This document shows positions 31,548-34,526 of a stretch of 64,000 nt of DNA, piece by piece. The notes below the pieces were generated by a model. That model saw only the letters and a program-made list of their open reading frames with translations. It did not search any database and was not told the origin of the DNA. Location: the NCBI GenBank assembly GCA_013285465.1, contig CP053449.1, forward strand, positions 2,318,735 to 2,382,734, given 5' to 3'. This stretch comes from Pseudomonadota bacterium (lineage in GTDB: Bacteria > Pseudomonadota > Alphaproteobacteria > Micavibrionales > CSBR16-224). Position 1 is the stretch's first letter; the number at the start of each line of letters is the position of its first letter. The position numbers were made by a program, and so were the translations under genes.

Positions 31548-32336
31548 ATGGCTTTACAAAAATTCTCACCCCGAGACGGCGTGGAAATCGCCTATCACAA
31601 AACCGCAGCGACGGATGACACGCTGCCGGGCGTGGTGTTCTGCGGCGGTTTTATGTCGGATATGACGGGCAGCAAAGCCGTGTTTCTGGAGGAATTCTGC
31701 AAAAAACGCGGACAGGCTTTTCTCCGTTTTGACTATACCGGTCACGGCTCCTCAAGCGGCAAATTCACGGACGGCACCATCGGCAGCTGGACACAGGATG
31801 CGCTGGATGCCATCGATAATCTGACCGAAGGGCCGCAAATTCTGATCGGTTCGTCAATGGGCGGATGGGTGTCGATGCTGGTAACGCTGGCGCGCCCCGA
31901 ACGCATCGCAGGGCTGATCGGCATTGCCGCCGCCCCCGATTTTACCGAGGAAATCTATTACGGCACGCTGACCGATGACCAGAAACGCGAGCTGGATGAA
32001 AAAGGCATCATCCATATCCCCTCCGATTACGGCGAGCCATATCCCGTCACCGAAGGGCTGGTCAAGGAAGCCCGCCGCCATCTGCTGCTGGGCGGTGATC
32101 TGGTCGATATCCGCTGCCCGATCCGCCTGCTGCACGGCAAAGAGGACACCGTCGTGCCCTGGGGAAAATCCCTGCGCATCAGCAAAGTCGTCGCCTCGAA
32201 AGATGTCGAAGTGCGCTTTCTGGACAGCGGCGATCACAGCCTGTCCTGCGAAGAGGGTCTCAAAATGCTCGGTGACGCCGTCGCCGAACTCACCGACACC
32301 GCCACCTCCCGCGTTGTCAGCCTGCATAGCGCGTAA
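31548..32336 (+). CDS. Alpha/beta hydrolase
   Basis: The 262-residue protein has the hydrolase fold with nucleophile elbow GSSMGGW (Ser near residue 104), acid in LLHGKEDTVVPW and His in SGDHSLS. FCGGFMSDMTGSKA and FDYTGHGSSSG complete the oxyanion side. No signal peptide is seen, so it is cytoplasmic. It resembles the small esterase/palmitoyl-thioesterase-like group, but the substrate is unknown. The gene starts 19 bases after ssb without a clear Shine-Dalgarno. Confidence 0.85.
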   Translation: MALQKFSPRDGVEIAYHKTAATDDTLPGVVFCGGFMSDMTGSKAVFLEEFCKKRGQAFLRFDYTGHGSSSGKFTDGTIGSWTQDALDAIDNLTEGPQILIGSSMGGWVSMLVTLARPERIAGLIGIAAAPDFTEEIYYGTLTDDQKRELDEKGIIHIPSDYGEPYPVTEGLVKEARRHLLLGGDLVDIRCPIRLLHGKEDTVVPWGKSLRISKVVASKDVEVRFLDSGDHSLSCEEGLKMLGDAVAELTDTATSRVVSLHSA

Positions 32337-32344
32337 TATCCTGC

Positions 32345-32372
32345 TTGCACTTCATAACATGTCTGCTACACT
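32345..32372 (+). promoter_or_regulatory. Probable promoter of the SPFH leader
   Basis: TTGCAC (32345-32350), 16-base spacer, TACACT (32367-32372). Transcription would start near 32379, giving a leader of about 220 bases before the SPFH gene. Confidence 0.5.
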
Positions 32373-32378
32373 TTGAGT

Positions 32379-32598
32379 GTTTTTCGGTAAAAAGCACCGT
32401 ATTACACATCTGTGTTTACTGCGTGCTGTAAAGAAGAACACGGTTCAAAACCGCTATGGAACAGGGGTTCGATTCCCCATTTGCAATGGTATTGTATTGG
32501 TTCTGTTCCGAGCGCTATCAATAGAACACGGTCTTGCGGATTTAGATCCCCACCGTCTCTATATGCACTCGGAACAGTTCTTTTCGAAAGGATATACT
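32379..32598 (+). ncRNA. Candidate structured leader or small RNA with tRNA-like T-arm
   Basis: This non-coding stretch is unusually rich in pairing. It holds a T-arm-like GGGGTTCGATTCCCC (near 32464-32478). CTGTTCCGAG (near 32502) is complementary to CTCGGAACAG (near 32568), and these enclose an inner stem (ACGGT...GGAT...ATCC...ACCGT). AGAACACGGT occurs twice (32435-32444 and 32523-32532). No complete tRNA or tmRNA can be built: there is no matching acceptor strand or CCA. It may be an RNA element, a remnant, or a regulator of the SPFH gene that follows AAAGGA. Confidence 0.4.
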
Positions 32599-33360
32599 AT
32601 GTGGGAATCCGTTCTTTTTCCTCTCATACTTTCTTTGGCACTATTTTGGGGGATTTCTCTTGTCTGGAAATATTTCTTTTCCAGTGTCACCGTCTACGAA
32701 TACGAAACAGTATTAATGTATAAAAAAGGTCAATTTGCAGGAAAACTGAAAACCGGCAAACATCGGTATAACAAATTCCATACGGAAATTTTTCGCGAAG
32801 ATAACCGCCTACGCACAATGATTACAGCGGGGCAGGAAATTTTAACCCAAGACCATATCAACGTAAAAGTCAGCTTTGTCATGTCATGGCAACTGGAAGA
32901 TTTTCAAAAAGCCAGAGAAATCAGTCGTGATTTTTACGGCGATCTTTATACGCAATTGCAAATGGCGATCCGCCAGTCATTGGAAGATTTTACATTGGAT
33001 GATCTTTTAGAAAAAAAACATGACGCTTCCGAGAAAGTCCTGACGCTGGTTCGCCCCTTTGCCGAAGATTTAGGTTGTTCCGTAAAAACAGTCGGTGTAC
33101 GCGATATAATGCTGCCCGCCGCTTTGAAACGTGCATATTCCGGTGTCATCGAAGCCAAAAAAGATGCTGCCCGTGAAATGGAAAAAGCGCGGGGGGAACA
33201 AGCCGTTTTAAGAAAACTGGCTAATCTGTCCCAAATGGTCAGCAGCAATCCAGGACTGCTGGAGCTGCGCACATTACAAGCCTTTTCCAACAGCGATAAT
33301 GTCAGTGTTATTCTGGGTGAAAACGCCTTGACAGTTCCCGTCCAAAAGAAAAAAGCTTGA
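32599..33360 (+). CDS. SPFH/band-7 (slipin-like) membrane protein
   Basis: From ATG 32599, preceded by AAAGGA at ideal spacing, the product has 253 residues. There is one N-terminal helix (residues 5-22), then an SPFH domain (QEILTQDHINVKVSFVMSWQ...YTQLQMAIRQSLEDFTLDDLL...VRDIMLPAALKRAY). A coiled coil with KKDAAREMEKARGEQAVL completes it. Such proteins form membrane microdomain scaffolds and often regulate proteases. The open frame continues far upstream, but that part is non-coding leader. The gene is somewhat more AT-rich than its neighbours. Confidence 0.85.
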   Translation: MWESVLFPLILSLALFWGISLVWKYFFSSVTVYEYETVLMYKKGQFAGKLKTGKHRYNKFHTEIFREDNRLRTMITAGQEILTQDHINVKVSFVMSWQLEDFQKAREISRDFYGDLYTQLQMAIRQSLEDFTLDDLLEKKHDASEKVLTLVRPFAEDLGCSVKTVGVRDIMLPAALKRAYSGVIEAKKDAAREMEKARGEQAVLRKLANLSQMVSSNPGLLELRTLQAFSNSDNVSVILGENALTVPVQKKKA

Positions 33361-33446
33361 CCAGATTAGAAGAGCGCAGAAAACCAATATTCTTAACTAT
33401 CTCCTCATTTTAACGCGACTTTAACCTTGCTGCGCTATAATTTGCT

Positions 33447-34526
33447 ATGGAAAAAGAAGCCAGCAAATTTCAGTCCCCTTTGGCCCCTGCGGAGATTGCG
33501 GAGAAATCCGTGCAAAAGGCCGTCGAATTTGCCGATCAAGGCCAAAGCCCTATTCTGGCATTGGGGGAGCAGCATTACACGTTTTCCCATCAGGTGTCGC
33601 AGGCGCTCACCTTAAAGCAGCTGACGGAACAACAGCAGAAAACCACCCTGTTCATGGAATATCCGCATAACCGCATCTCCACCATACTGCTGGATCGCGG
33701 CTATGACGCGGGTGACGCGCAAAAACTGGCGGATCATATTCAAAAAAACGACCCGCACGGCCATATCGCCGCCAAGGCGGTGATCGGCGGCAATCCGGAG
33801 TCATTGCGCGGCGGCAATTTCCACCGTTTTGAAAGCATGCTGCCGCTGCAGGCCGCCATTCATCACGGCATGGATATCGTTTTTGCCGATGCCGCCCGCG
33901 TTTATCCCGATGATTTCTGTATGGATTACGGCGATGCCGCAACGGAAAAAATCGCGCAGGATTTGCATGCGCGCAAAGCCCCCGCAGGTGAATGCGGACC
34001 CGATGACATGCTGATCCGCAATACCCATATGGCGCAAAGCATTCAAAATACGCTGGTGAAAAGCGGCGGGATCGGCGTCCTCGCCACAGGCGCCGCCCAT
34101 ACGCTGGGTGTTGAAGATACCGCAAACGGGCAGCATTGCTATCAGGACAGTCTTGCCAAACGCTTTCAGGAAATGGGGCTGCCCGCCATCATCGCCAGAT
34201 TATGCGGTCACAACGATCTGCCATCCGATTACGAAGCACCGGAAAACGGGCAAATCCATCTTTTTGATAAGCCCGATCCGCAAGTGCTGATTGACGATAT
34301 GTCCGATAAGGACATCCATGACTGCATGACGAAAAACGGGCTTGACCCCGCCATCTATGACCCGCGCAATTTCGCCGAAAGCTACCGCGCCGCATTCGAT
34401 ACGGTGCTTAGAAAAGCGGAAAAAGATCTGGGCATAAAAACGCCCGCAATGCCGCAAAAAACCGCCACTCACGCCCGTGAAGGCAACAGCCAAAGCGCAA
34501 AAGCGGCAAAACCGCTCTCCGTCTAG
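33447..34526 (+). CDS. GExH-motif protein of the TraB/EreA/ChaN-like fold
   Basis: The 359-residue soluble protein shows ILALGEQHYTFSH (residues 37-49) and TLFMEYPHNR, then near residue 213 GVLATGAAHTLGV. This GExH...E...GxxH order is the signature of the TraB/TIKI/ChaN/erythromycin-esterase-like superfamily. Its members are metal-dependent proteases, esterases or haem-binding proteins. The activity here is unknown. The tail is low-complexity. No Shine-Dalgarno precedes ATG 33447. A perfect TATAAT (33436-33441) lies so close that the transcript may be leaderless. Confidence 0.65.
   Translation: MEKEASKFQSPLAPAEIAEKSVQKAVEFADQGQSPILALGEQHYTFSHQVSQALTLKQLTEQQQKTTLFMEYPHNRISTILLDRGYDAGDAQKLADHIQKNDPHGHIAAKAVIGGNPESLRGGNFHRFESMLPLQAAIHHGMDIVFADAARVYPDDFCMDYGDAATEKIAQDLHARKAPAGECGPDDMLIRNTHMAQSIQNTLVKSGGIGVLATGAAHTLGVEDTANGQHCYQDSLAKRFQEMGLPAIIARLCGHNDLPSDYEAPENGQIHLFDKPDPQVLIDDMSDKDIHDCMTKNGLDPAIYDPRNFAESYRAAFDTVLRKAEKDLGIKTPAMPQKTATHAREGNSQSAKAAKPLSV

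What the first reader, a model, noticed from the sequence alone, without database searches (positions are those of the whole stretch)
32379..32598. Structured, tRNA-like leader in front of an SPFH gene
The 220 bases between a likely promoter and the gene contain a T-arm look-alike (GGGGTTCGATTCCCC), nested stems closed by CTGTTCCGAG/CTCGGAACAG, and a repeated AGAACACGGT. No known RNA family was recognised and no full tRNA can be built. It may be a new cis-acting or small RNA.
Basis: partly seen in the sequence, partly recalled or inferred. Interest (0 to 1): 0.6.

Follow-up and report, generated by a model that had tools for sequence, protein, structure and literature searches.

The report
tRNA-mimicking RNA before slipin gene
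The stretch in front of this membrane-scaffold (slipin/SPFH) gene carries a real, strongly conserved folded RNA that imitates parts of a tRNA; it looks like a stripped-down relative of tRNA-like RNAs found in front of the same branch of slipin genes in other bacteria, some of them in RNA-repair gene clusters.

Summary
In detail: T-arm (32464-32478), CTGTTCCGAG/CTCGGAACAG hairpin (32503-32577, z -6.4) and AGAACACGGT repeat are present; no Rfam family, tRNA or tmRNA matches. The 262-nt leader differs at 2 sites from its congener's, against 18-30% at third codon positions of six nearby genes; both changes stabilise the predicted fold.

The two nearest slipin relatives outside the genus carry collinear RNAs, one in the leader, one just 3' of slipin. 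The hairpin apex keeps its fold through compensatory changes and occurs nowhere else in the sequence scanned.

The SPFH protein falls in a slipin clade, apart from ordinary slipins, whose genes usually follow T-arm or tRNA-like RNAs (7 of 10 loci; 0 of 28 ordinary SPFH loci). In Citrobacter the order is rtcR, T-arm RNA, slipin, RlaP. I recall such an RNA reported with Band-7 RNA-repair modules (Burroughs & Aravind 2016; not readable here). The window version is a divergent minimal variant: no cloverleaf, and no RtcB in the genome.

Most likely it is a tRNA-mimic partner RNA of slipin that may also control slipin translation through a Shine-Dalgarno hairpin. Function is inferred.

The parts
32344..32372 (+). 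possible promoter TTGCAC-17-TACACT
   Evidence: sequence; not flagged by the consensus scan; L112 has TTGCAC-17-TATAAA upstream of its slipin leader; inference
32378..32440 (+). H1: hairpin TGTTTTTC/GAAGAACA with inner AGCAC/GTGCT and ACAC/GTGT helices; its first base lies about where the promoter would start transcription
   Evidence: fold, pairing probability 0.95-0.98 for the main helices; z -2.7 on + strand
32441..32453 (+). H2: anticodon-arm-like hairpin CGGTTCAAAACCG
   Evidence: fold; L112 has CAGTCGTAAACTG in the same place before GCTATGG, a compensatory G-C to A-T change
32464..32478 (+). T-arm look-alike GGGGTTCGATTCCCC
   Evidence: sequence; unique non-tRNA site away from tRNA-Glu copies in the genome; matched by TCGGTTCAATTCCGA in L113 and TGGGTTCGATTCCCA in L120
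32503..32577 (+). H4: long hairpin CTGTTCCGAG..CTCGGAACAG
   Evidence: z -6.4, 0 of 500 shuffles; pairing probability 0.97-1.0 for the outer 10 pairs
32528..32556 (+). apex of H4, ACGGT-CTT-G-C-GGAT-TTAG-ATCC-C-C-ACCGT, with a bulged C
   Evidence: same fold in L112:1188-1215 and L113:1932-1960, 29 of 30 pairs kept, pairs 2 and 5 changed on both sides; nowhere else in 1.1 Mb
32578..32592 (+). H5: TTCTTT/AAAGGA hairpin that would hide the Shine-Dalgarno sequence
   Evidence: predicted (about 0.77 in G001; in G000 the AAAGGA pairs mostly with TTCTTT inside the gene instead); weak alone (z +0.7); the congener change 32579 T>C turns U-G into C-G
32599..33360 (+). Band-7/SPFH (slipin) gene, 253 aa
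   Evidence: Pfam PF01145; groups with tRNA-like-associated slipins in the tree
33447..34526 (+). ChaN-like gene (weak match below cut-off), present and absent together with the slipin gene in the family
   Evidence: Pfam PF04187 20.8 bits, cut-off 27.7; found only in G000 and G001 of 7 family genomes

Best explanation
The leader is a tRNA-mimicking non-coding RNA that belongs with the slipin gene behind it: a divergent, reduced relative of the tRNA-like RNAs that accompany one clade of Band-7/slipin genes, some of them in RtcR/RlaP RNA-repair modules. Shown by sequence: a constrained RNA with an anticodon-arm-like hairpin, a T-arm and a long hairpin with a conserved bulged apex; homologues beside the nearest slipin relatives; T-arm or tRNA-like RNAs before most slipins of the clade. 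Inferred: it is transcribed with slipin; its tRNA-like part is bound or cut by something that acts on tRNAs (an anticodon nuclease, a tRNA-modifying enzyme) or held by the slipin membrane scaffold, so that it works as a decoy or damage sensor; refolding or cleavage would free the Shine-Dalgarno sequence and raise slipin synthesis.
For: Leader differs at 2 of 262 sites between two species whose third codon positions differ by 18-30%; contains the most conserved 260-nt window of 19 kb. H4 z -6.4. Collinear homologous RNAs at L112 (0 of 400 shuffles as good) and L113 (p 0.005), apex with compensatory changes and confined to these three slipin loci. 7 of 10 clade loci against 0 of 28 ordinary SPFH loci have an upstream T-arm. 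The tree joins the window slipin with these, 100/99. rtcR - T-arm - slipin - RlaP in Citrobacter. In L113 the RNA is 3' of slipin, which argues for a partner RNA rather than a pure leader.
Against: No cloverleaf, D-arm or acceptor stem in the window RNA. RtcB is absent from the genome. The T-arm is degenerate in L112 and its stretch has no folding excess in the window. Alignment with the tRNA-like leaders of L123 and L125 is not above chance. H4 is more stable on the minus strand. No expression or binding data.
Confidence: 0.5

Rival explanations
1. A purely cis-acting leader (attenuator, riboswitch or thermosensor) whose T-arm likeness is incidental: H4 followed by TTCTTTT acts as a terminator, or H5 masks the ribosome site, in response to an unknown signal.
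For: GGAACAG 32458-32464 can pair with CTGTTCC 32503-32509, in competition with H4; H5 covers AAAGGA; both congener changes raise predicted stability; L112 keeps TTTTC..GAAAGG near the start codon.
Against: The competing fold is 9 kcal/mol weaker (-58.2 against -67.2); the scan flags no terminator on the + strand; the L113 homologue is 3' of slipin; T-arms recur across the clade.
Confidence: 0.25
2. A decayed tRNA or an integration scar (duplicated tRNA 3' end) left by the insertion of the slipin/ChaN pair.
For: Such scars exist elsewhere in this genome, for example a tRNA-Glu 3' half in L090 and tRNA-Met-like 3' halves in L091 and L092; the gene pair is lineage-specific; the T-arm resembles that of tRNA-Glu in relatives.
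Against: No acceptor stem or CCA; no matching tRNA in the own genome; decay does not predict 2 changes in 262 or homologous RNAs beside slipins in other families.
Confidence: 0.04
3. The conservation is a local gene-conversion or recombination tract between the two species and the structure is mostly incidental.
For: Only two genomes define the constraint, and the conserved tract runs slightly into both flanking genes.
Against: H4 z -6.4; collinear homologues in other families of the class with compensatory changes.
Confidence: 0.06
4. The working RNA is the minus strand (an antisense RNA), since H4 is more stable there.
For: H4 is -38.2 on minus against -30.9 on plus; a weak terminator-like site lies on minus at 32454-32440.
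Against: T-arm and Shine-Dalgarno features exist only on plus; H1 folds better on plus; the homologues share plus-strand order.
Confidence: 0.07

Closest known systems
tRNA-like RNA of SPFH/Band-7 RNA-repair modules (Burroughs & Aravind 2016, doi 10.1093/nar/gkw722; content recalled from memory, paper not held)
   Same: T-arm RNA next to a Band-7 gene of the same clade; RlaP and rtcR beside the Citrobacter relative
   Different: no cloverleaf in the window; no RtcB in the genome; no rtcR or RlaP seen next to the window gene; has a long bulged hairpin instead
[quoted passage not shown]
   Same: non-coding RNA with a tRNA-like part in an RNA-repair context; L115 tRNA-like unit gives a partial sub-threshold match (29.7 of 69 bits)
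   Different: no YrlA match in the window; partner here is slipin, not Rsr/Ro60
PaFlo8, an SPFH protein inside the rtc locus of Pseudomonas aeruginosa (PMC13086221)
   Same: an SPFH gene embedded with rtcA/rtcB/rtcR
   Different: no RNA element is mentioned in the passages found; relation to the window clade not tested
Anabaena alr0740 slipin in the TrcR regulon with rtcB and the trn tRNA operon (PMC10272220)
   Same: a slipin co-regulated with RNA ligase and tRNA genes under translational stress
   Different: regulated by a repressor protein; no adjacent tRNA-like leader reported in the passages read

Membership tests
Band-7-associated tRNA-like RNA | adjacent SPFH/Band-7 gene of the RNA-repair-linked slipin clade | tested here: met
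   tree split 100/99 against 28 ordinary SPFH proteins; long branches inside the clade
Band-7-associated tRNA-like RNA | tRNA-like element next to the gene | tested here: met
   T-arm and anticodon-arm-like hairpin in the leader; clade 7 of 10 loci, ordinary SPFH 0 of 28
Band-7-associated tRNA-like RNA | cloverleaf recognisable as tRNA | tested here: not met
   ARAGORN none; Rfam tRNA below threshold. Also not met in the Citrobacter, E. coli, L112 and L113 loci
Band-7-associated tRNA-like RNA | RNA-repair genes in the genome or operon | tested here: not met
   RtcB absent from G000 and G001; RtcR and RlaP not tested genome-wide
YrlA | match to Rfam RF02553 in the leader | tested here: not met
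   no hit at gathering or at E up to 10
YrlA | Rsr/TROVE protein partner in the genome | not tested
tRNA gene | acceptor, D, anticodon and T arms | tested here: not met
tmRNA | tmRNA model match | tested here: not met
   ARAGORN and Rfam
T-box or any other Rfam riboswitch or leader | Rfam model match | tested here: not met
transcription attenuator | terminator stem with U-run plus a competing antiterminator | tested here: inconclusive
   H4 plus TTCTTTT not flagged by the scan; competing fold exists but is 9 kcal/mol weaker

The most novel reading that the evidence does not exclude
A reduced tRNA mimic (anticodon-like arm and T-arm beside a long bulged hairpin) is the RNA partner of a membrane slipin in the absence of any RtcB ligase: a stand-alone slipin-RNA stress module in which binding or cleavage of the mimic switches slipin synthesis by unmasking its ribosome-binding site.
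Probability: 0.2. Interest if true: 0.8.

Novelty: new variant of a known kind. Interest (0 to 1): 0.57.

Why it matters
Slipins are widespread membrane scaffolds with poorly understood roles. A conserved tRNA-mimic RNA beside one slipin clade, often in genomes without RtcB, suggests that these slipins respond to tRNA damage or tRNA-directed attack independently of RtcB ligation. The window RNA is missed by Rfam and tRNA finders. A leader related to the Citrobacter one, with a T-arm in the copy examined, was detected in 1,624 of 5,426 complete E. coli genomes, and no RNA is annotated in the locus examined, so the idea can be tested in laboratory strains.

Tried and rejected
Searches that gave no homologue: leader DNA against plasmids and phages; T-arm pattern and SPFH protein against viral contigs (a profile search gave one 31% relative, L138, not followed up); CM R1 across 142 genomes of the order, only the two congeners; the order of G160. 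Coding explanation: an in-frame GTG ORF spans the leader, but both congener changes are nonsynonymous second-position changes while the neighbouring genes change mostly at third positions; rejected. The tRNA-Glu match in relatives is only the T-arm. tRNA-Sec and mir-511 hits are chance. The first forced antiterminator was mis-registered and was redone. MAFFT misplaced the gap in the L112 apex, so pairs were counted by script with the gap in the loop. Burroughs & Aravind 2016 and Chen 2014 could not be read.

Full report
OBSERVATION. The leader is 262 nt between an alpha/beta-hydrolase (31548-32336) and a Band_7/SPFH gene (ATG 32599). The strongest structural signal is the hairpin 32503-32577, z -6.4 against 500 dinucleotide shuffles; the T-arm stretch alone is not unusual energetically. 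In the whole genome the T-arm pattern occurs 19 times, with 0 for the reversed control; 16 are in tRNA genes, 2 at or near tRNA-Glu copies, one is this leader. ARAGORN and Rfam find nothing in the leader.

CONSTRAINT. One other genome of the genus (G001; L058) has the gene and leader. Over the 19 kb aligned, the leader holds the most conserved 260-nt window of about 15,000 (258/260). It differs at 2 of 262 sites, while six neighbouring genes differ at 18-30% of third codon positions and 1.8-4.3% of first and second positions; a tRNA-Ser differs at 0 of 92. Both changes raise predicted stability: 32579 T>C turns a U-G pair of the Shine-Dalgarno hairpin into C-G, and 32420 T>C allows a further G-C pair in H1; they rank in the most stabilising 4% and 15% of transitions. 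In the upstream in-frame ORF both would be nonsynonymous, so protein coding does not explain the conservation. Gene conversion cannot be excluded from two genomes alone.

GENE CONTEXT. Within the family (7 genomes held) the slipin gene and the ChaN-like gene behind it occur in G000 and G001 only; in G006 the hydrolase neighbours the EttA-like ABC-F gene directly. The pair is therefore a lineage-specific insertion, or a remnant of losses elsewhere.

HOMOLOGOUS RNAs. A covariance model of 32500-32594 finds only these two genomes among 142 of the order. The nearest slipin relatives in the sampled class are L112 (44% identity) and L113 (34%). The model picks up the hairpin apex beside both: L113 19.5 bits, E 0.0025; L112 12.4 bits, E 0.24. 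By pairwise alignment the L112 leader is collinear with the window leader over its length (0 of 400 shuffles as good), with GCTATGG after the small hairpin, the apex, and GAAAGG near the 3' end. The L113 element is collinear too (p 0.005): T-arm, CCATTTTGC, apex, TCTTTTCG. Two coding-sequence controls gave p 0.2. In the apex 29 of 30 pairs are kept over the three sequences; pairs 2 and 5 are changed on both sides and remain paired, and pair 9 is changed on both sides in L113 but broken in L112. A pattern for this apex occurs at only these three distinct places in 1.1 Mb counting both strands; five rounds of shuffled sequence gave 3 hits, about 0.6 per round. The small hairpin CGGT-TCAAA-ACCG is matched by CAGT-CGTAA-ACTG in L112. 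In L113 the RNA lies about 100 nt after the slipin stop, so the element is not tied to the leader position.

THE WIDER KIND. More distant slipins of the same clade have T-arms upstream. In L122-L127 these are one or two nearly complete tRNA-like units (up to 61.7 bits to the Rfam tRNA model in the shorter loci of the same places), abutting in L123 and L124, with odd features: ARAGORN's Leu types lack a long variable arm, one anticodon is AAA (Phe), and the first units of L126 and L127 have shortened anticodon loops. In Citrobacter a single T-arm lies between a sigma54-type site (TGGCAATAACACTTGC, by eye) and slipin, with rtcR before and RlaP (PF10127, E 1.5e-96) after. Related leaders were found in 1,624 of 5,426 complete E. 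coli genomes; the one opened has slipin and the nucleotidyltransferase but no annotated RNA. In the Citrobacter-E. coli alignment GGGTTCGATTCCCA is unchanged while its flanks vary. Counting loci other than the window and leaving out the E. coli near-copy, 7 of 10 clade loci have an upstream T-arm (L120, L122-L127; not L112, L113, L121) against 0 of 28 ordinary SPFH loci; by hand the Fisher probability is about 1e-5, with L126 and L127 from one genus and some upstream windows longer than the controls'. The value used 8 of 10 and is superseded. The loci were chosen by protein similarity, not by RNA. The SPFH tree puts the window with these slipins (split 100/99), apart from the ordinary ones; long branches make places inside the clade unsure.

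RNA REPAIR WITHOUT RtcB. From memory of its abstract, Burroughs & Aravind 2016 describe a novel tRNA-like RNA as the cognate RNA of SPFH/Band-7 modules in RNA-repair systems. The paper is not in the library; its existence is confirmed by citations and RlaP's place in RNA-repair systems by PMC6514570. RtcR senses 5' tRNA halves in Salmonella and the operon's YrlA carries a tRNA-like domain (PMC7790460). An SPFH gene sits in the rtc locus of P. aeruginosa (PMC13086221), and an Anabaena slipin is in the TrcR regulon with rtcB and the trn tRNA operon (PMC10272220). RtcB is absent from this one-contig genome, from G001, and from four other genomes with a clade slipin (G142, G160, G358, G405), with positive controls. 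The slipin-RNA pair therefore does not require RtcB in the same genome; G001 and G160 are incomplete assemblies.

MECHANISM (inferred). I favour a tRNA-mimic partner RNA of the slipin: a decoy or sensor for tRNA-directed enzymes, or an RNA held by the slipin scaffold. The Shine-Dalgarno sequence is mostly paired in the predicted folds of both species, though with different partners, so refolding or cleavage could also tune slipin translation. Neither step is shown.

MEMBERSHIP AND NOVELTY. The window RNA fails the cloverleaf and repair-gene features, so I do not file it as a standard member; it resembles, and is probably related to, the Band-7-associated tRNA-like RNAs. I call it a new variant of a known kind.

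Noticed in passing
L130:4001-4330 (E. coli NZ_CP028379.1) and L120:3266-3570 (Citrobacter plasmid): Leader with a T-arm (GGGTTCGATTCCCA) before slipin and the RlaP-type nucleotidyltransferase, without an annotated RNA; similar leaders in 1,624 of 5,426 complete E. coli genomes.
   Followed up: partly
L123-L127 and L122, roughly 330-560 nt before the slipin start where this was measured: Tandem tRNA-like units with unusual anticodons or shortened anticodon loops, followed by long GC-rich hairpins.
   Followed up: partly
L090:530-575, L091:489-543, L092:510-555 (own genome, near 1623343, 1080288, 1072220): Precise 3' halves of tRNA-Glu and of a tRNA-Met-like gene, ending in CCA; they look like attachment-site scars of integrated elements.
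   Followed up: no
L089, own genome 1603731: A second GGGTTCGAATCCC about 190 nt after the end of the tRNA-Glu gene, not called as a tRNA.
   Followed up: no
window 32503-32577: The long hairpin is more stable on the minus strand (-38.2 against -30.9 kcal/mol), because two A-C mismatches become G-U pairs; unexplained.
   Followed up: partly
window 32599-34526: The slipin and ChaN-like genes are absent from the other family genomes held; L105 shows hydrolase and EttA-like gene side by side without them.
   Followed up: partly
window 32377-32598: A GTG-started ORF runs in frame through the leader into slipin; congener changes argue that it is not translated.
   Followed up: yes
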